Source: Undaria pinnatifida (lineage: Eukaryota; Sar; Phaeophyceae; Laminariales; Alariaceae). Taken from it: DNA of 64,000 nt. The notes beneath the pieces were generated by a model. That model was not told where the DNA came from and did not search any database. It was given only the letters and a program-made list of their open reading frames with translations. Below, piece by piece: positions 14,521 to 57,900 of this stretch; position 1 is the first letter of the stretch, and the number at the start of each line of letters is the position of its first letter. The stretch is taken from NCBI GenBank assembly GCA_012845835.1, contig JABAKD010000002.1:12379120-12443119 (forward strand). The letters are read 5' to 3'. A program made the translations under genes and the position numbers.

Positions 14521-15240
14521 ATATACCGGGGGGTTATAGAATATAGAGGAAGAGAAATGCATTTACACAGTTCAATGGACTACCGTATACGATACAAGAT
14601 AACACATCCGCAGAAGATAAGATACCACACCCCCCACACAATACAACACCCGGTGGTATTTTTTTTAGTCTCAAACGAGGGGGGGGTTATCACCCGGGTC
14701 ACATTAATAGCACGCCCCCATAGGTTACGCCGCATGTATTCACGGGGCCTGCTACTATTACCCGGGTGATGCTTCATTCTGTCTTGTGGTCACATAGAAC
14801 ACACACCTTTGTGTGCGGGTAACCACCCCGTACGGAGACTTTCAACTACATGAACGTGGGGGAGAACAGATCACGGCGCAGGTGCCTCCGCTCCTTCGAC
14901 AGCTGCATTTAGCTTCGACCGCAGCAGTGCGGCAGCAGGAATTTTTACAGCAAGTGTTGTCACCCCCCTTGCCTGCAGGTGTGCGGCAGCAGTAGTTGTT
15001 TACAGGCAGTATTACCACACACCCTTTTATAACCCCCCCTCGCTACCACACCCCTTGCAAGTGTGCGGCAGTGCTATCACACTCCCTGGTTCATCACGCA
15101 CCCCTTCATGGCCCATGCGGCCTGCACTTTATCACTTGGGCTACAACAATATACTACCCCCCACACAGAATACAACACCCGGTGAATTTTGTTTTGAATT
15201 CGAAAAATGTCATCGTCGGGGTGTGTTGTCTTATGTCGTA
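14520..15240. other. Non-coding stretch with short repeats
   Basis: A 'cacaatacaacacccggtg' block occurs at 14636 and 15166, and 'cccgggt' occurs near 14693 and 14760. No gene seen. Confidence 0.4.
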
Positions 15241-15261
15241 CACGGTACGCGAAAACTCTGA

Positions 15262-15665
15262 AACTGCGACGTTGTGCAGGGGGGCTGGACCTGCCAGAAA
15301 ACGAAGGGGGTATATCACTAGTTGGGTGGAGGAGGAAGAAGGCGCACAGAGCTGCCCCTGTGGCAAGGTAGACGAGAGCAGACCTCACATGGTGGGAGAA
15401 TGTGAACTGTACAAGGAGGAACGGGATAAACGAATACGACATGGAGAACTTTGGTACACTAGTAGACAATAGCGAGAAAACGAACGCCATCCTAGGAGAC
15501 AGATGCATGTCCCAGACCGGCCAAACAGGAACGAGTCAAAATAAGCAATCAGAGTTCATAATGTACCGTATCGAAGAAACGTAATGAGCGCCCAAAGGTT
15601 GGAGGTGTCTCTTTTAGGACTAGAAAAAATGCTCGGTCTCGAAAGGGGTGCGTGGTCAATGGTCA
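15262..15665 (+). mobile_element. LINE 3' end, ORF2 C-terminus (copy 1)
   Basis: The translated stretch carries a C-x-C-x8-H-x4-C knuckle at about 15354-15404 (CPCG...H...EC) followed by a Tyr/Arg-rich helix. This is the usual C-terminal signature of non-LTR retrotransposon reverse transcriptases. The frame stops at 15472. Downstream, another frame continues with SEKTNAILGDR, which also appears in the second copy at 39095-39560, so there is at least one frameshift. Only the last part of the element is present, as expected of a 5'-truncated LINE. The 3' boundary is near 'caatggtcaaatga'. Confidence 0.75.
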
Positions 15666-32424: not shown

Positions 32425-33061
32425 GCAGCAAGCACAAGAAAACGAGCGCCACCTGAACGAACTAGAGAACGAGGCACACCGTACGGCCGACAGGGTCTAC
32501 AACGACTTTGAAGCTGCTTCTTTTAGCATGAACAGGAAGCTCCGCCTTGCTCGCAAACTCCGCAATGTTCTCCACCAGAACAGGATCGTTGCACACCGCA
32601 CATGGAGCCGAGCTTCTGCGCTCGAGAGGCAAGCTGAGGAGGCCCACCTCGCTCACCAACGTGCTAAACTTGAGGTGGACGCCATGGCTCAGGGGGGAGT
32701 GCTTTCGGCTCCGGGGAGGGAGGAGAGGGAGTCGTCGGTTCAGAAGGGCGCCGAGGAAGCAGGGAAGGACGAGAAAGTAGCGAGGGGGGAGGCGAACGAA
32801 GCTTGGTTGGTGGCTTTGAATAGGGGTGAGATGGTGGCGAAGGTGGCAGAGTTGGCAACGGGGGCGGAGAGGGCCCACGGGGATGCGCGGAGGATGGTGA
32901 GGAGGCTGAGGAGGGAGGTTGCTTGCGCTGAGGCCAGGGTGGAGGAGGTTGTTAGGAAGGTGGCTGCTGTGAGGGCGGGAAGGGGGAAGGGGATTGGGTT
33001 GCTGCTGGCGGAGATGGGTGTGCTGGCCGCTTCTCACGAGGAGGAGGACGAGGAGGATGAG
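32425..33061 (+). CDS. Coiled-coil protein, internal exon (unknown family)
   Basis: An open frame runs through 32231-33106. The credible coding part starts after the CAG acceptor at 32424 (QQAQENERHLNELENEAHRT...) and continues past the first ATG at 32528. The peptide is long, charged and helical: Arg/Lys and Glu/Ala with heptad-like spacing (LRLARKLRNVL, SALERQAEEAHLAHQRAKLE, ARRMVRRLRREVACAEARVEEV) and an acidic end (EEEDEEDE). This suggests a coiled-coil. No enzyme motif, signal peptide or membrane helix is visible. A GAG|GTACAG donor at 33061/33062 in phase 0 follows. The 5' exons are not found. If translation starts at 32528 instead, the exon gives 178 residues. Confidence 0.5.
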
Positions 33062-33723
33062 GTACAGGTTATTTATATTAGGGGCGTCTTGTTTTTTTGT
33101 GTGTGATGTCGTTGGTTGGAGGTGCTTTAGTGCTGTAAAATTGTACCAGGTATTTCTTTACACGTTCTTTACGTAAAAAGAGTACTATGAGAGTCTGTCG
33201 ACCTATCCCTGAACATGGAGGACATAGATGGTGGTGTTTCCATTTTGGGCAACTGGCTTCATAATATCTTCAGTTAGTGTTGCTGACTTTGCGTCGTCTG
33301 AGTTTTTTGTTTCTTTAATAACGAGGTAGTTTTGGAAACATCCAAAACATATGGTGTAGGTGATCAAAGCAGTAATATGGGCACGTATCAGCAAAACGGC
33401 AGTCAACAAAAAGTCGATCGCAACGAATTACGCCGCACAATGTCTGAAACCGCCTTGTGTTTCGAGACAGACTGGTGTTGGGTATGTTATAGGCGGGTAT
33501 GTTGCACTCGATCAAAATGCATGCACCAAGACAGTACACGAGTACACGACCGCCCTCGCTCACCCCTCCCCGCCTCCCTTTGCTCCCGTCCCCTCCTCTG
33601 CCCCCCCCACCCCCCTCCTTTCCTCCTTTGCTTCTCCTTTGCCCTTTTTTTACCACCCCTCCCCCCCGCCCCCCCTTTGTCCCCGAAATGAAACCGCTGT
33701 CCATTCATTCGTTTGTTATTTAG
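33062..33723 (+). other. Putative intron of the coiled-coil gene
   Basis: It starts GTACAG and ends '..cattcgtttgttatttag'. A pyrimidine-rich block at 33555-33680 is followed by that acceptor. Open frames in it are C-rich artefacts. Confidence 0.35.
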
Positions 33724-44664: not shown

Positions 44665-45264
44665 CACTATAGAAGGATCACTACTGCTGTAGCTCATTTT
44701 CTTTGGATTATGGCTCATGGTCACAAAACCTGTAGGCAAAAACAAACAACTGGACCAGGTCAAGCCAGGTTGGGGTTTCGCTTGTTACCAATAGCGGCGT
44801 GTCTCCATCCGGCGCAAGGAGCACGACCCACCACATACCCAGGAATTATAATGAAGGAGATCGCGATTTGATCCCTTGACTGCCCCCTACACTAAGCTAG
44901 TATAGTGTGCACGAAAGGAGCCTAGGCAAGCGCCAAAATACCGGTCTTCTAGCACCTTAGCTACTGACTGCCTGGCCGCTCCCCTACCCTGTTACATAAC
45001 AGTTTAGTATGGCCAAACGATGCCTTGACGCGCAAAAAAAAACGGTATCTTAGTATGGCATATTTGCTGCTCACTGCCTGATCGCCCGCCCTAGACCGAC
45101 GCGCCTAAAACGACCGGCCTTTATTAACAACGCTATTTATGATACTACCCGCCCGAAAGCATAAGACTCGCCCTTCGCAAGAACAGGCGAATGTGTTGCT
45201 CACGACCGATGGACTTTGTCATGGCTCTTTACCGACGGCGTGATATGGTGGTCTCTCTATAGTG
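44665..45264. mobile_element. CACTA-like non-autonomous element (tentative)
   Basis: The left end CACTATAGAAGGATCACTAC and the inverted right end (CACTATAGAGAGACCACCAT on the minus strand) match at 15 of 20 positions. Both ends are bordered by CCGG, and subterminal 'ccggcacta' and 'caccggcaataggcac' motifs repeat around them. A third locus with the same subterminal text lies at 50160-50225. CACTA elements typically have such ends and subterminal repeats, but the 3-bp target duplication is not clear and there is no transposase. Confidence 0.45.
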
Positions 45265-45398: not shown

Positions 45399-46642
45399 TC
45401 ATACATCATCATCGTCCTTCGCTGGAGGTGGTCCGCACGGCTGGAGCATTTTCTGTTGTTTATTTTCGTTAAGAGGTGCGAGAAAGAGCAAAAGCGGGGG
45501 AGAGGTAACACGACAGAGGGGTAATTTTTGTGTTAGCATTTCAGTTCACGAAATTATCAAGTATCTACTGATGCATATCCATCCTCGGATCCATGTCCTC
45601 ACCTCGTCAATGTGTATAGCACTACGATCGGTTTTGCCATAAAAAAAAGTGTACTGGTACATTATAGCACAGAAACGTAAGCATCGATCTCACACACATA
45701 AAACATATACTCACAATGCGTATCTATCTACCGATAAACGTCGATCACTTATTTACAGCTAAATACTACAGAAGGTAAATAGGTGTATACACAGATTCAT
45801 GCTATCCATGCACATCATCTCATCACCTCGAGCAGCTGGTAGCGCACGCGGCCAATGGCATTGTTCTCTGCCACTGCAAAGTATGAGAGCAAGTCGCTGT
45901 GTCCGATGTGCGAAGCGATCGAGTCTCGGTGCTGGTTGGTGGCCCACTCGCTGGCCAAGAAAAAAATCAGGGCCAGCGTAGGACAGGGAAATGAAGGGTA
46001 ATGAGGCAGGTCAACGGGTGGGATAGGGATCATCAACCGGGAGGGAGGGGGTGTTTGAACGTGGAGGAGGGCAGCGTTTCAACTGAGGGAAAGGGGACAT
46101 TTCGAAAGGGGGAGTAGGGGCATCTCAACGAAAGGGTGACTGGTGACTGGTTGTTCTTGTTGCTTTAACCTATATTTGACTGAATATAGTATCGCAAAAA
46201 ATGAAACAAAAACATGGCGAGTCTGAGATGAATATTAACAGGTAGAGCGTGAAGCAGTACTATTAATATTAATAGCACCATATTGAGCGAGTGAGGTACA
46301 GTTCCTTACATTGCACTTGGGACAAGTCCCCTATCGCTGTTGTTGTTGTTATTTGGTCAGCACAGCTCGTTTCGTCGATAAAATACATATCCCTTGTTGT
46401 CAGCACCCAGTCCGTTTCATCGATAAAATACGTACCAGCATGATAGAACCATAGACTACTTTGAATGTTTTTCGAGCAGTTTTGAAAGGGTTATAACCTG
46501 ACAACGAAACAGCAACTTCGAGGCTCCCCAAGAAGCTCCCACACTTTCACACCCACAATTTCGTGGTGTCCGAATGGCCAGTACCGATGTATTTGTTCTG
46601 GATGTGATCCCAACTCCGGTTCATGTTGAACCGGTCGGCCGC
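45399..46642 (-). CDS. SF3B5: SF3B5 (SF3b10), splicing factor 3b subunit 5; exons 46642-46557, 45950-45827, 45452-45399
   Basis: SF3b10 is a small (about 85 aa) nuclear subunit of the SF3b complex of U2 snRNP, which helps hold the branch-site duplex. The three exons translate as ADRFNMNRSWDHIQNKYIGT...HSDTTKF, EWATNQHRDSIASHIGHSDL..SYFAVAENNAIGRVRYQLLE and KMLQPCGPPPAKDDDDV-stop. They follow the family sequence end to end (compare human TDRY..., SKYIGTGHADTTKWEW, NQHRDSY, YFAIAENES, KMLQPCGPP). Splice sites: acceptor tttctgcag before 46642; donor ATT|GTGGGT at 46557 (phase 2); acceptor cttggccag before 45950; donor GAG|GTGATG at 45827 (phase 0); acceptor aacaacag before 45452. Introns are about 606 and 374 bp. 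All phases agree. The start codon lies in an upstream exon not yet certain. The acidic C-terminal tail is common in the family. I see no break, so it is probably a working gene. Confidence 0.93.
45453..45826 (-). other. SF3B5 intron (374 bp)
   Basis: Begins GTGATG and ends ..aacaacag on the minus strand. It contains no other feature I can support. Confidence 0.85.
45951..46556 (-). other. SF3B5 intron (606 bp)
   Basis: Begins GTGGGT and ends cttggccag on the minus strand. Plus-strand text near 46010-46140 is purine-rich. No nested gene. Confidence 0.88.
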
Positions 46643-48614
46643 CTGCAGAAAGGGGGGGCAGGGGACACGGAGCACGGGGACAAGGAGCGAGGAACACAGA
46701 GACAGGGAACACGGAACAATGGAATGGGGGACGCGGCGGTTAGCGTGCGCCTAGCGGGACATGGTAGTCGGCTTGGTGCTTACCCTTCACAGAAGAAGCG
46801 GTTGTGTAGGTCGCACAACAAGCTTCCGCGGGGACACACGAAGAAAGCGCTCGCAAGTCCGCACGCCATAACACGAGCGAATGCGAAATACATAAACCCA
46901 TACCGCGCCAAACATAGGTGCGACCGAAGCCGATTCTACGACCGCCGACCAAGATCTCTCTCCGGATTGAAGTCAGGACCGCCGACTTTTTTCTTCGACC
47001 AATCGCGACAAGCCAAGCAGAACCCGGAAAATAAACAGCAAGCAGCAGCAGCAGCAGCAGCAGCGCTGAACACCACCGAGAGTCTCGTGCGAGTCCCACA
47101 GTAGGAACTCACACAGAAGGATAGTCAGCTGGGATATTTGTAGCTGTCGTAAACTTTTGGGCGTTCGTGGAAGGTGCTGAAAGCTAAAAGTCACAACTCG
47201 TCAACTAACGGTTGTGTCGAAAGAGTATCCACGCCGGGCAGGGCGGACAGCAGCATACACGCAACACGCAAGGGCAAGGCAGAGATCAGAAGATCAGCTA
47301 GGATCGGGCCCGTTTGCGCACTCACGCCTGTGCCTCCCAGGGTGTACTAGACATAATACTTGTACCAGGGTGCCATGCGACCATTTCTGCTTCCTACTGT
47401 GCTTGGTACTGCTGTAACAGGCGACACGACCTTCAGCCTTCAGCACAGACTTGCTTATTGCATGGCCAAATCGCCTTGCTGTACTTACAATGTATACGAG
47501 CTGGGCCGGGCAAGAGGCCCTGATAAGGACAATATCGCAATATCACACCCAATTTTTGGAGTTTGGATCAGAAATTTTGACACGTGATTTCAAACAAGCT
47601 GAGCAAGACATTCAAAATCGGATGCAAAAAAAAAATGGAAAAAATGTCTTATTACGGTCGGCCCAAATTTTTGCTGAAGTTTGAGGCGGGGAAAAGTGCA
47701 TCGATTTTTTTTTTTTTTTTTGCATCTTACTTCTACTTGTTTTTTCAGCTTGATTCAAATCACGTGCCAAAATTTCAGGTCATAACTTCAAAAATTGAGA
47801 GGTCCATGGCTAAGTTTCCACCGAAGCGCCTCTGCATACAAATTTACATATATTTCAGGGATTCATCCATAACTTTCGAACGAAAGTGACCCATGAAATG
47901 AAACGCATATGTCCCTACTTCTCGCCCCAAGATGTACATGCCTAGAAAAATTGAGCCAATTCCATCCACGTTGTATTTCGAGCAATTTTAGAAAAAGCAA
48001 CACAAACAAATCATGAAAAAATGCTCAAACTAGGGGACGTGAGTGGCAAACACTTTTTTCGGCACCAACGTGGCAGATTCTCAAGCTGGAGGGCTTAAAC
48101 TGACCACCGTATCTAGCTGATTACGAGGATATGCTCAGTTTGCAGTGGGTCACTGTCGTTCAAAAGATATGCCCGACTGACGGATTAGGAGGTTTCTTGG
48201 CCGGCCCATTTCGTATTCCTTTCTCGTAGTTTGTGACCACAGAGCTCGTTTCCATGAGGCGTCAGGACGGACACGGGGTGTGCAGGATAGGTATTGATCG
48301 CTCACACCAAGCCTACCATTAGTAGTAAATCAAAAATAACCCAAGCTACATAAGTGGTGCAAATATCACGTGGCCCCCAAGTAACAGAAACCCCGCCAAA
48401 CACCCCATGGACCAGCACCCACGGGTCTCTCACGCCCAGCCTACTGCGGCGCTGCTGCGTTGTTGCTACGACTGCTGTGTGCGGCAGACGTCGCTCTTGT
48501 CCATACTGTAACCGAAATACTCCACGCAATGACTTATCAATGATGCTTGTCCTTCAAGGAAGTACAGCATGCTGTTAACAAGCGAACCGGGCGCGGAAAT
48601 TGAACTCTTACCAT
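46643..48614 (-). other. Upstream SF3B5 region, possible long first intron
   Basis: The acceptor is secure (cccctttctgcag). A candidate start lies at 48614-48612, where ATG is followed at once by GTAAGA. That would give a phase-0 intron of about 1.97 kb and restore M-A-A-D-R-F. Other first exons are possible. The region contains degenerate 'ggaacacgga' repeats (46660-46725), a (CAG)8 run (47037-47064, plus strand) and the inverted repeat at 47566-47781. The 176-codon plus-strand frame 46574-47104 overlaps SF3B5 antisense and is rejected. Confidence 0.35.
47566..47781. repeat. Fold-back inverted repeat, about 60-bp arms
   Basis: The left arm 47566-47626 ('gatcagaaattttg.cacgtgattt'...'gatgca') is the imperfect reverse complement of 47721-47781. 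The spacer has an A-run and a T-run. It looks like a small fold-back element. Confidence 0.65.
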
Positions 48615-48655: not shown

Positions 48656-50340
48656 CTACGTGCTCGGGTCAGGGTTGGCTGCCCTACGCGTAGTGCAGCG
48701 CAAAATCTTGTTTTCAGGTTTTGAGAAATTCGATTATCGTCGAATGAAGGGTTTCAAAACATTGCTTGGCTATGCAGGCAAGGGGGTACTCGAGAAAAAG
48801 CCCGGCCGGAGGCAGAACACCCGAGGCACCACACCACAGACCACTCCACAGCAGACAGAAGCAGAGCGCAGGCGACGATAGGCATCAGACTTGCTCATCA
48901 GCGGATTTTTTCCCCACGACGCGACGCGGTGGAACGATAAGGTGAGCAGAGGCCGACATGGAAGTTCAACTGTGAGGGAACTTCGTGACGTACAGCAGTA
49001 GTTCTTCGTGTTCAATGACTCGTTGGGTAAACCTCGTTGCTTGTTGCAGTTCACGCTAAACGCGTCGCGTATGATGCCAACATACCAACCCAAAGCAGAC
49101 GCAAGGAGACAGCACTTAGAACCCCCGACAACACAGCACACTGGCCTTGATTTGCCAAACCAACTACCTGAACGTCCCCTTTCCTCTCCTCTTCTTTTGT
49201 CCTACCAATTACCCCCCCCTTTCCTCTCGTCCTCCTTCTCATGGTATCATGGGGAAGGCAGCAAGATGAACCACGCTTGAACCGACAAAGCATCGAGCGT
49301 TTTGATCACTATGATACCGTGCTATGACAGGAGACAGGAGTGCTTGTCAGTTTTTGAGGGTTTCACCACCTCCCGCAGACGTGCTGTGACAGCAACAAAA
49401 CACTACTGTAATTGCACTAGACTGCTACCAGGTGCCTGGCATCTGGTAGGTCCTACGTAGTGGAAAACACTCGACCCAACACCCTTGCAACAGCCTTCCT
49501 TGACAGCGCGCGTTTTCCCTTGCTTGACAAGGGACATGTCTTGTGCCATCTGATACCAACATTTCATAGCCGAGTCTTCCACTCGTGCGTAGCCTCTCTT
49601 GTCAGTATGTCGTACGAGTTCTCTGCTGCCCTGGGTGATGTCACGTCACACACGGTCGCCAAAGAACCGATACCGTGGGAGTCCCCCAATAAGGCGGCCT
49701 GAGTACGGCGACATCCCGATATAAGGTGGTCAAAATCGCTTGGCAAGACGGGGAATTGCACGCATAACCTGAAGAGAATAGTGCGGCTTCCCTATACAAG
49801 GCGGTTATACTCGTATTGCTCTCGCACCACTCTCGCTGAGTGTACGCTCTCCCTCGTCTGCTCTGCTACCACCCGCCCGACCGTTGGCTTATTTACACCG
49901 CAGCGGCAGCAGCGAGATCGTCTAAATATGTATCTGTCTGCCGTTGCGAATAGGGATAGATGGCTCGTATCCCCCCATCCCTCTAACACAGATCGGCGCG
50001 GTGCCCCCCCCACTTGCTGCCTCCCTGCTCTTATCAGACCCTCTTCGTTCGGCCCAGGAAGAGGAGCAAAAGTGTCGTCCGCTGCGTGCACATACCACGT
50101 GCCAAGTGTATAGCAGTTGTTGGCAGCTGTGCTCGTTAAACGGAACTACCTGTTGGGCATCTCCCTATAGTGCTGGTTGAACAGTGCCTATTGCCGGTAT
50201 AGTGCCAGTGGAATCGCTTGACGCGGCGAAACTCGCTATGTTAGTACCACTATCGGTACTATACCCGATATTGCCGGGTGTCTGATATACTGAAGGCATT
50301 CTTCGCTGGCACATACTGACGCTATAAGGAGACCACCCCT
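48655..50340. other. No gene I can support
   Basis: A frame at 48710-48880 (+) follows a good acceptor (cttgttttcag) and reads FEKFDYRRMKGFKTLLGYAG..., but no partner exon is seen. 49680-49800 repeats 'ccc.ata.aaggcgg'. 50150-50225 carries the CACTA-like subterminal text. Confidence 0.35.
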
Positions 50341-50528
50341 GACTGTTGTTGGGTCGCGTGACTTCAAGCAGCTACAGGCTACCAGGTACATCGAACACGC
50401 TGCTCTTCAGGGTTCGTGCACCTGGTGCTATATCGTGCCAGGCACAAGGAAGAGCTTATTCACCAGTGCGGGCATCAAAGCTATACAAGGTACCAGGTAC
50501 AGCAGAGCAGGGGAGGGGGAAGCGAAAT

Positions 50529-51596
50529 ATGGAAGGCAAGGCCGTCGACGCTCTTCGCTTGGTGGCCCTATCGGGCGTAGTCCGCCCCTTCGAGATTGAG
50601 CTCGTGTGCCTGGCGGCATGCAACGCGTGTCGAGAGAGTAGCGCGGACTACTCGGTGGTCGTCAAAACCAACAACATCCGCACAGTAGTAAGACCCCCCC
50701 CACCAGTAACACTAGCACCAGCACCAACGGCAGCAGCAGCACCGAAACCGTCTGGACTAGTTTCCTGCAGTGGCAGCAGCACCAGCAGCACCAGCAGCAC
50801 CAACAGCATTAGCAGCGGCAGCAGCAGCAACAGCGACAACGATAACACCAACAACAACGGCGGTGGAAAACCTACAACCTCAATCAATATCACTACCACC
50901 ACACCAAGGATAACCCCCCATCGGCGAATATCCCGTCTAGCCTTCCATCTAGACCTCCAACTAACCCACGTAACCTGGCCAGAAGGCCTCCAAATCCTCC
51001 GCTTCGGCTGGGCGTTTGACCACCCCTTAGAATGCCCTCTTCCCCCCTCCCTCCTCGAGGTCGACCTGGGGGGCATCTTCAACCACCACGTCGAAGACGT
51101 GGCATGGCCGCCCCGACTCACCAAGCTCCGATTTGGCGACCGCTTCAACCGCCCCATAGAGCTCGCCACCTGGCCAGCCACCCTCAAGAGCCTCAAATTC
51201 GGGGCATCATTTGATCAGCGCATCGAATCTGTGGACTGGCCACCCGCCCTAGAAAGTCTAAGCTTAGGAGATGCCTTCAACCACCCCGTTAGGTCTGCCT
51301 CCTGGGCCACTACGAGCCTGAGGAGGCTTGATTTCGGGATGGCGTTCCGTGAAGCGGTGGAAGGGGTGGCGTGGCCGGCTGGCCTCGAAGAGCTCAGGTT
51401 TGGGGCTTGTTTCGACCAGGCCCTGGACACGAGGCAACTTCCCAGGAGTTTGCAACTCCTGCAGGTGCCGGACCTGTACCTGTTTGATGATCACACGTTT
51501 ATGATGCCGGGCCATTTGCCGGATGGCTTGCCGGAGGGCTGCGAGCTGTGCGTGCAGACGGTTGTCTTGTGCGATCAGGACCTTATCGCCTTTTGA
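50529..51596 (+). CDS. FNIP-repeat (leucine-rich type) protein, 355 aa
   Basis: ATG at 50529 (aaATATGG) opens a 355-codon frame ending TGA at 51596. The frame extends 61 codons further up to a TTG without another ATG. Residues 1-54 form a conserved-looking helical domain (VDALRLVALSGVVRPFEIEL...). Residues 55-130 are a Pro/Ala then Ser/Thr/Asn linker. Residues 148-300 hold seven units of about 22 aa with the core W-P-x-x-L-x-x-L-x-F-G-x-x-F-[ND]-x-P-[IVL]. This is the FNIP repeat, known from Dictyostelium, some giant viruses and stramenopiles, and thought to form a solenoid for protein binding. Residues 301-355 close the fold. The partner is unknown. No signal peptide or membrane helix. The linker overlaps CAG/AAC repeats; an intron there was considered, but GT-AG phases do not match. 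Confidence 0.85.
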   Translation: MEGKAVDALRLVALSGVVRPFEIELVCLAACNACRESSADYSVVVKTNNIRTVVRPPPPVTLAPAPTAAAAPKPSGLVSCSGSSTSSTSSTNSISSGSSSNSDNDNTNNNGGGKPTTSINITTTTPRITPHRRISRLAFHLDLQLTHVTWPEGLQILRFGWAFDHPLECPLPPSLLEVDLGGIFNHHVEDVAWPPRLTKLRFGDRFNRPIELATWPATLKSLKFGASFDQRIESVDWPPALESLSLGDAFNHPVRSASWATTSLRRLDFGMAFREAVEGVAWPAGLEELRFGACFDQALDTRQLPRSLQLLQVPDLYLFDDHTFMMPGHLPDGLPEGCELCVQTVVLCDQDLIAF

Positions 51597-54847: not shown

Positions 54848-54919
54848 GGGGGTATAGCTCAGGGGTAGAGTGTTCGCTTCGCATGCGAAATGTCTGGGGT
54901 TCAAATCCCCATACCTCCA
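54848..54919 (+). tRNA. tRNA-Ala(CGC), copy 1
   Basis: A 72-nt cloverleaf: acceptor GGGGGTA/TACCTCC with the G3-U70 wobble that marks alanine tRNAs, D-arm GCTC...GAGT, anticodon arm TTCGC-TTCGCAT-GCGAA with anticodon CGC, and T-arm TGGGG-TTCAAAT-CCCCA. There is no intron and no encoded CCA. Internal A box (TAGCTCAGGGG) and B box (GGTTCAAATCC) are intact, and a T-run (tttgttttt) follows as Pol III terminator. This is the most canonical of the three copies. Confidence 0.96.
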
Positions 54920-55775
54920 CTTTGTTTTTCCATGCACAATTATTTATTGATTTTTTTTTTCCCCTCTGTTTTATTTCCAGTTCCCTATTTGCTCTATTTC
55001 GATTGATTGGGAGACGTTTGTGTTATTTTAAGACTTGGTTAGGGGAGGCAATTGGGTAACCACCCAACAAACTGAGTCTTATACCATTTGTGAGTGATTG
55101 ACGTTGTGAGGTCTCATATCGTGCTATACGTATACATTATTTCGGCTGGTTATTGTTGTGTACATCAACGTTTTTGTGTACGTACCCAGGTAGGAACATG
55201 AATGGTCTTCAGTGGTTTGTGTTTCTTCGTCCTTTGTTTTCGGCATTTATCTTTGTGATTGCGGCACACACGCTGCGCACCATTCTCACGAAGAAAGGTG
55301 TAACTTCTTCAGCTTTCGAAGCGTATTATAGTCACGTAACCAAGGTATGATCGGACCACAAAAAATAGTAATTGAGAATTAATCGAGTGTAGAGTGGTAT
55401 ATTCTCCTTCCTATCTATGACGCGACACACAGAATCACCACACGATGTGTTCGCATGCGTTGGGATGTATTGTCAATGCGTGTTTTTCATCATTTGAGTG
55501 TATTAATGTTTGTTTGACATCCGATGATAATGCGGGAGCAGATTCCCATAAATGGAAAACCAAGGGAAACCAAAAGAAAAGGAAATCTACCATGACGAAG
55601 TCCATCTCTTTTCTTGTACCTGATCTATTGCCCTGTATGTTTTCGGCTTCGGCATATATACCTTGTATATATGCGCATAATGTTATTATTGTGGGGCCTG
55701 TTTATAAAATATCTTCGTTTATACAATGCGCGATCGCGGGAGCAGCCAGGCTTCATGAGCGCGTCCGTAATTGTT
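54920..55775. other. Spacer between tRNA genes 1 and 2
   Basis: An open segment at 55198-55349 between 'tacccag' and AAG|GTATGA reads MNGLQWFVFLRPLFSAFIFVIAAHTL..., a possible exon with one hydrophobic helix, but nothing else supports it. Confidence 0.35.
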
Positions 55776-55847
55776 GGGGGTATAGCTGAGGGGTAGAGTG
55801 TTCGCTTCGCATGCGAAATGTCTGGGGTTCAAATCCCCATACCTCCA
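55776..55847 (+). tRNA. tRNA-Ala(CGC), copy 2
   Basis: Identical to copy 1 except C13 to G in the D-stem (GCTG), which loses the pair with position 22. All other stems, the G3-U70 pair, the anticodon and the B box are kept. A T-run follows (ctttttttctc). Flanking DNA is unrelated to that of copy 1, so the duplication is old or the flanks have been replaced. Probably functional. Confidence 0.93.
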
Positions 55848-56428
55848 CAAACTTTTTTTCTCCCTTCTCGACGCCATGATAACATATTCCCGGTACAATA
55901 TGCAAACGGACCGACGAAATACCCTCGTACAAGGGTTGAGGCGTTAATAAGGTTTGAGTCGGGTTTCGCTCGACACTTATCAAACATGTTTTTTCAAATA
56001 ATTAATTTAGAAATGAATGGCCAAATTAGAAACTACAGACTGAAGTTAGTTGTAGTAGTACAGTGGACTAGAAATTCACTGACTGTTGTATACGTAATAC
56101 ATTATAGTATAGTACGACAGCAACGGTAGACTAGAGTAGTGAAGGACGTGCCCCGCGTCAAACGAGCCTACGAAGCAACAGTACAAATTAAAAGTAAATG
56201 TAACAGCCAAAAAAAACTGAAAAAAATGTCAACCAGGCGAAAAATCTTATTGCACGTGTGCACCATTATTGCAACACGAAGAATTAAAACGTCTGCTTAT
56301 TAATGCTACAATGTACTCGACGAGTACTACTTGTACGTAATCTTGACGATAAAAAATATGAACGTGTAACATGCAAACGATGGTATGAAAAAAAATCGCC
56401 ATCCTCAGGGACCTAGTCTGTTTTTTGT
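55848..56428. other. Spacer between tRNA genes 2 and 3
   Basis: No gene or repeat that I can support; AT-rich in its second half. Confidence 0.4.
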
Positions 56429-56500
56429 GGGGGTATAGCTCAGGGGTAGAGTGTTCGCTTCGCATGCGAAACGTCTGGGGCTCAAATCCCCATACCTCCA
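56429..56500 (+). tRNA. tRNA-Ala(CGC), copy 3
   Basis: Same 72-nt fold, with two changes: C for T in the variable region (ACGTC) and C in place of the near-invariant T54 at the start of the T-loop (CTCAAAT). The latter alters the B box (GGCTCAAATCC) and the T54-A58 pair, so transcription or stability may be reduced. The Pol III terminator is weaker (tattattttaattttt). It may be a decaying copy. Confidence 0.85.
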
Positions 56501-56529
56501 CATATTATTTTAATTTTTGCCCTCCTTCT

Positions 56530-56815
56530 GTGATAAACCGACCGGTCTCCTGTGTATATAGATACAGCCCTCTGATGTTGTCCCTTTCAAAGCGGGTTAT
56601 ATAGTTTCCGTGCACATAATAAGGCTTAACACCTTAGTCCTGTTGACACAGGTGTGGGCAGGGGAGTCACCGACCTGTGCCCTTACACGAGAAGGTATAC
56701 ACACCCCGTAACACGCACGATCGAAGCATCACACGCAGCAGCTTGCAAATATGACTTTCGATCAAAACGTTTTTCGGTCGATCTTAAAGCTGAAGCGTCA
56801 TTTTAATTTTTTCCA
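56530..56815 (+). repeat. Repeat family C, diverged copy
   Basis: Same block order as 42790-43075: 'tgtccctttcaaagcgggttatatagtttccg' in parts, 'ggggagtcaccgacctgtgccctt', 'gcacgatcgaagcatcacacgcag', 'agctgaagcgtcattttaat'. Confidence 0.65.
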
Positions 56816-56886
56816 ACCTTGATAGTTTTTTTCGTTTAGGCCTCGGTAGATTTCTGCACGTCTGGTGGATTAAAGAATAGCCACCT

Positions 56887-57230
56887 GGTATATACGAATT
56901 GCCGTTTTCGGTTGCTTTTTACTTTGGTTTAGTGTGCCGAGTGTCGTATCGGTGGTATCGAGACCTTTTTTTGGTATATACGAATTGCCGTTTTCGGTTG
57001 CTTTTTACTTTGGTTTAGTGTGCCGAGTGTCGTATCGGTGGTATCGAGACCTTTTTTTGGTATATACGAATTGCCGTTTTCGGTTGCTTTTTACTTTGGT
57101 TTAGTGTGCCGAGTGTCGTATCGGTGGTATCGAGACTTTTTTTTGGTATATACGAATTGCCGTTTTCGGTTGCTTTTTACTTTGGTTTAGTGTGCCGAGT
57201 GTCGTATCGGTGGTATCGAGACCTTTTTTC
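56887..57230. repeat. 86-bp minisatellite, four near-identical units
   Basis: Units start with GGTATATACGAATTGCCG at 56887, 56973, 57059 and 57145, an exact 86-bp period. They end in 'gtatcgagacc' plus a T-run of six to eight. The units differ almost only in T-run length, so expansion is recent or homogenised. Confidence 0.97.
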
Positions 57231-57900
57231 GGGCACCGTACACTCGTTGCACTCTTTACGCCAATCGAACTAAACGCTTCACGAACTCGAATGAAACGTC
57301 ATCCCGTTTCGGGAAACCTTTTGGCTATTAAGGCGCGTAGTATTTGACGGCAGATATTGAATTTTCCTAACGTAGCGCTATTTACGCACTCTGCTGGCTA
57401 AGGGATATCGTCAAGCGGCTCAATCAACCTATTGTCTTTCCAGTCACACCATGCCGATCCGGCAGAATCAACCGAAGCGTCTTTTCAAGCACAGCATCCA
57501 AGTCGGCCGAGTCAACCTAGAGCCTCCACAAGCCACAGCATCCAAGCACAGGTCACCCCGGCGCGTGAGGGCTAGCGTCAAGGTTAGGGTTCGAGTCGCG
57601 GGTGGTGGGCGTTAGGCGGCACGGTCGAAAGCTCCGTGAAGACTCACTATCAATCAAGCTTCAAGTAGGGCTCTATCAGACTGATCTAGGTGCAGATATG
57701 CTACTTGTAGGACAACGCGGTTCGACCCCTTGACCGACGGCCGACACACAAAAGATAGATGTCGGTTGACGGCTGTCCACGGAACGCTCCATACTACTAA
57801 TAAAACAGTATATTACGTATAAAGAGGCCCTGACGGGACAAAGCCAGACCGTCAACCGACATCTTCGCCGACACAGGCTACTAATAGTACAGTGTGAAGG
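57231..57900. other. Non-coding stretch with a small hairpin
   Basis: 'atgtcggttgacgg' (about 57760) and 'ccgtcaaccgacat' (about 57848) form a 14-16-bp stem with a loop of about 75 bp. No gene. Confidence 0.45.

What the first reader, a model, noticed from the sequence alone, without database searches (positions are those of the whole stretch)
45399..46642. A conserved spliceosome gene (SF3B5) hidden as short exons
No single long frame shows it, yet three minus-strand exons join in phase to almost the whole SF3b10 protein. It is the clearest host gene here and fixes the window as nuclear, intron-bearing DNA. Seen: translations and splice sites. Known: family sequence and role in U2 snRNP.
Basis: partly seen in the sequence, partly recalled or inferred. 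Interest (0 to 1): 0.7.

Follow-up and report, generated by a model that had tools for sequence, protein, structure and literature searches.

The report
Algal gene for splicing factor SF3B5
This is the ordinary, apparently single-copy gene for a small conserved part of the RNA-splicing machinery (SF3B5), split into short exons in the nuclear genome of what looks like a brown alga.

Summary
Three minus-strand exons (46642-46557, 45950-45827, 45452-45399), with AG acceptors before all three and GT donors after the first two, join in phase to 87 codons plus a stop. The joined protein matches Pfam SF3b10 over the whole model (1-78 of 78, E 2.6e-37) and human SF3B5 at 50 of 84 aligned residues. Searches of the window's own 511-Mb assembly found these exons and no other copy. 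The best candidate is an ATG-only coding exon at 48614-48612 (donor ATG|GTAAGA; MAADRF...); the second is 46915-46904. Both are inferred. The assembly also matches families of SF3B1, SF3B2 and PHF5A and encodes fucoxanthin-chlorophyll proteins, so the host is probably a brown alga. It is a normal housekeeping gene, new only as one more family member. No transcript data were available. Interest is low.

The parts
48612..48614 (-). Candidate first coding exon of SF3B5: the ATG alone, donor ATG|GTAAGA, followed by a 1,969-nt intron (48611-46643); gives MAADRF...
   Evidence: Inferred. Best-scoring of 91 in-phase ATG-to-donor choices within 3.36 kb upstream, with recalled generic donor weights; an ATG directly on a donor of score 5 or more occurs once in both strands of the window, which must be this one, as it scores 5.1.
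46904..46915 (-). Alternative first coding exon (MFGA), donor GCG|GTATGG, 261-nt intron
   Evidence: Inferred. Nearest in-phase candidate with a fair donor (score 2.0); candidates of 1.9 or more occur about 3 times per 3.36 kb in this window.
46557..46642 (-). SF3B5 coding exon, AADRFNMNRSWDHIQNKYIGTGHSDTTK(F)
45951..46556 (-). GT-AG intron, 606 nt, phase 2
45827..45950 (-). SF3B5 coding exon, (F)EWATNQHRDS...RYQLLE
45453..45826 (-). GT-AG intron, 374 nt, phase 0
45399..45452 (-). Last SF3B5 coding exon, KMLQPCGPPPAKDDDDV and stop
45120..45125 (-). AATAAA, possible poly(A) signal 274 nt after the stop
   Evidence: Motif match only

Best explanation
A functional nuclear gene for SF3B5 (SF3b10), the roughly 90-residue core subunit of the SF3b part of U2 snRNP, in a fucoxanthin-bearing, probably brown, alga. 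The pre-mRNA is spliced from at least three coding exons and most likely four, the first perhaps holding only the ATG. By the known family role the product sits between the beta-propellers of SF3B3 with the C-terminal HEAT region of SF3B1, and helps hold the complex that fixes U2 snRNP on the branch point. Shown: exon structure, protein homology and no second copy found in this assembly. Inferred: start exon, transcription, function and lineage.
For: Joined frame intact; Pfam full-model match, E 2.6e-37; 5 of 5 distinct PDB sequences at E 0.01 or better are named SF3B5, YSF3 or RDS3 complex subunit 10; 50 of 84 residues as in human SF3B5; no second copy found in the assembly; families PHF5, DUF382 of SF3B2, CPSF_A and SF3b1 matched in the same assembly. 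Place and partners of SF3B5 in SF3b: passages of PMC7452928 and PMC8785561.
Against: No transcript evidence. The start exon is not settled. Donor ATT|GTGGGT is weak by recalled generic weights (0.28). Orthology rests on family match and copy number; no tree was made. SF3B4 and SF3B6 were not searched for, and the CPSF_A matches were not assigned to SF3B3. One of the 2 PHF5 matches and 3 of the 7 CPSF_A matches carry stops inside, which I take as frames run into introns but did not check.
Confidence: 0.96

Rival explanations
1. A decayed or silent duplicate of SF3B5; the working copy lies elsewhere.
For: No start codon next to the conserved part, and no expression data.
Against: No stop or frame break in 87 codons and splice borders intact; no other copy found in 511 Mb.
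Confidence: 0.02
2. The same gene, but the protein starts at the internal ATG (46624-46622) with no upstream coding exon.
For: It is the first in-frame ATG after the upstream in-frame stop.
Against: It would drop AADRFN, of which ADRFN aligns with residues 2-6 of human SF3B5, and the conserved part begins just after a good-looking acceptor, a pyrimidine tract plus CAG.
Confidence: 0.06
3. A virus-borne or virus-derived SF3B5 rather than an ordinary host gene.
For: None found.
Against: No relative confirmed in the IMG/VR contigs (27 stretches matched a short pattern, none confirmed), though that scan used exact peptides of this one protein and reaches close relatives only. Two GT-AG introns and a contig of at least 12.4 Mb.
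Confidence: 0.01

Closest known systems
Human SF3B5 (PDB 5ife chain B, 86 aa)
   Same: Colinear over 84 residues without gaps, 50 identical, including KYIGTGH, NQHRDS and EKMLQPCGPP
   Different: Acidic tail PAKDDDDV here; gene split by at least two introns, whereas the human gene is intronless (recalled)
YSF3 (PDB 5hy7 chain D) and RDS3 complex subunit 10 (7dco, 5gm6)
   Same: Same family; E 1.2e-26 for YSF3 and about 4e-5 for the two subunit-10 sequences
   Different: More distant; the subunit-10 sequences align only over query residues 15-72

Membership tests
SF3B5 / SF3b10 (PF07189) | Match over the family model above the curated cut-off | tested here: met
   127.2 bits against a cut-off of 27, positions 1-78 of 78
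SF3B5 / SF3b10 (PF07189) | Small protein of about 85-95 residues with little else | tested here: met
   87 codons plus an unplaced, probably short, N-terminus; the solved relatives are 84-95 aa
SF3B5 / SF3b10 (PF07189) | SF3b partner subunits encoded in the same genome | tested here: inconclusive
   Families of SF3B1, SF3B2 and PHF5A matched; CPSF_A matches at two places not assigned among SF3B3, DDB1 and CPSF1; SF3B4 and SF3B6 not searched
SF3B5 / SF3b10 (PF07189) | Physical presence in U2 snRNP / SF3b | not testable with these tools
   Needs pull-down or structure
Spliceosomal GT-AG intron-bearing nuclear gene | GT-AG borders that restore the frame | tested here: met
   Both introns between the three exons
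Spliceosomal GT-AG intron-bearing nuclear gene | Spliced transcripts | not testable with these tools
   No RNA reads on hand

The most novel reading that the evidence does not exclude
The first coding exon of this splicing-factor gene holds nothing but the start codon, so a splicing subunit can be made only if the machinery it belongs to removes a first intron of about 2 kb: a possible autoregulatory switch.
Probability: 0.05. Interest if true: 0.35.

Novelty: new member of a known kind. Interest (0 to 1): 0.1.

Why it matters
It gives a corrected gene model for an essential splicing subunit in this assembly, with candidates for the missed 5' exon, and it marks this part of the window as ordinary nuclear DNA. 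Beyond annotation it changes little.

Tried and rejected
A start codon contiguous with the first exon was rejected: in frame there is a stop upstream and no ATG between it and AADRF. Ninety-one in-phase ATG-to-GT choices (exon up to 200 nt) within 3.36 kb upstream were ranked and the best 20 printed; the rate of such sites was then measured on both strands of the window, these sites included. The donor weights were recalled generic eukaryotic frequencies, not trained on this genome, so the ranking is only a guide. A viral SF3B5 was sought in IMG/VR and none was confirmed. Two other window open frames, 14996-15469 and 32528-33103, gave no Pfam family. The species was not settled: the paper on Undaria pinnatifida gives 511,280,173 bases in 114 scaffolds, GC 50.14% (passages of PMC7058681), close to but not the same as the 511,146,479 bases in 68 contigs here; a further search listing gave nothing decisive. 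Papers on SF3b were picked from a search listing. A paper search for brown alga, SF3b, spliceosome and intron together listed two papers, neither about this gene by title and start of abstract.

Full report
Observation. On the minus strand the exons 46642-46557, 45950-45827 and 45452-45399 are 86, 124 and 54 nt long and join to AADRFNMNRSWDHIQNKYIGTGHSDTTKFEWATNQHRDSIASHIGHSDLLSYFAVAENNAIGRVRYQLLEKMLQPCGPPPAKDDDDV and a stop. Both introns, 606 and 374 nt, begin with GT and end with AG. The joined protein hits one Pfam family at E 0.01 or better, SF3b10, over the whole model at E 2.6e-37. In the PDB the 5 distinct sequences matched at E 0.01 or better are all named SF3B5, YSF3 or RDS3 complex subunit 10; the human one aligns over 84 residues without a gap, 50 of them identical.

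Copy number. The window is G000:C26:12379120-12443119 of an assembly of 511,146,479 bases in 68 contigs. The family search found 2 matches, the first two exons, and the protein search 3, one for each exon; none lies outside this gene.

The missing start. The conserved N-terminal segment runs up to the acceptor at 46643|46642, and in frame upstream there is a stop with no ATG between. The true start must lie on an upstream exon that ends in phase 0, or the protein starts inside at 46624. Among 91 in-phase choices in 3.36 kb, the best donor is at 48612 (ATG|GTAAGA, score 5.1), which gives MAADRF, and the nearest fair one is at 46904 (GCG|GTATGG, score 2.0), which gives MFGAAADRF. Three others score between these two: an ATG-only exon at 48319-48317 (2.5) and two starts sharing the donor at 49168 (2.3). 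Over both strands of the window, in-phase candidates of score 5 or more occur 6 times (0.16 per 3.36 kb) and those of 1.9 or more 113 times (3.0 per 3.36 kb); an ATG directly on a donor of 5 or more occurs once, which must be this one. These rates include any real exons. For comparison, the two donors that the homology fixes score 0.28 and 2.22, so a high score is not required of a real donor here, which weakens the ranking. I put 48614 at about 60% and 46915 at about 15% by judgement; the weights were recalled, not trained here.

Context. The same assembly matches PHF5 (2 matches, one with a stop inside), DUF382 of SF3B2 (2), SF3b1 (2) and CPSF_A (7 matches at two places, 3 with stops inside, not assigned among SF3B3, DDB1 and CPSF1). 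SF3B4 and SF3B6 were not searched. It has 61 matches to the chlorophyll a/b-binding family. One of them (L025:1366-2028) aligns with the PDB chain FCP17 of 9ygv over residues 23-221 at E 2.3e-122, 186 of 199 residues identical by my hand count of the printed alignment; the tool does not show that chain's organism. FNIP repeats are plentiful (106 matches, a lower bound because 150 of 397 candidates were scored), which I recall as usual in brown algae. Undaria pinnatifida has a published assembly of similar size but different length, scaffold number and GC (passages of PMC7058681).

Mechanism. SF3B5 sits between beta-propellers A and C of SF3B3 with the C-terminal HEAT region of SF3B1, and SF3B5 or SF3B6 is missing from some species (passages of PMC7452928). 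About 49% of SF3B5 residues take part in contacts between subunits, and SF3b helps recognise the branch-point adenosine (passages of PMC8785561). SF3B5 is also reported in SAGA in human and fly (passage of PMC7452928); nothing here tests that for algae. The gene is ordinary: one more member of a well-known family.

Noticed in passing
window 50346-51596 (+): Open frame of 416 aa with FNIP repeats (Pfam E 2.1e-21); the assembly has at least 106 FNIP matches, one of them here.
   Followed up: partly
window 54848-54920, 55776-55848, 56429-56501 (+): Three tRNA-Ala(CGC) genes within 1.7 kb; a search with the first found 11 places in the assembly, three of them these.
   Followed up: partly
window 56800-57315: Tandem array with an 86-nt step, central copies 99% alike, just downstream of the tRNA cluster.
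   Followed up: no
window 47550-47797: Inverted repeat with 93-nt arms 76% complementary, 62 nt apart, inside the proposed first intron of SF3B5; possibly an old fold-back element.
   Followed up: no
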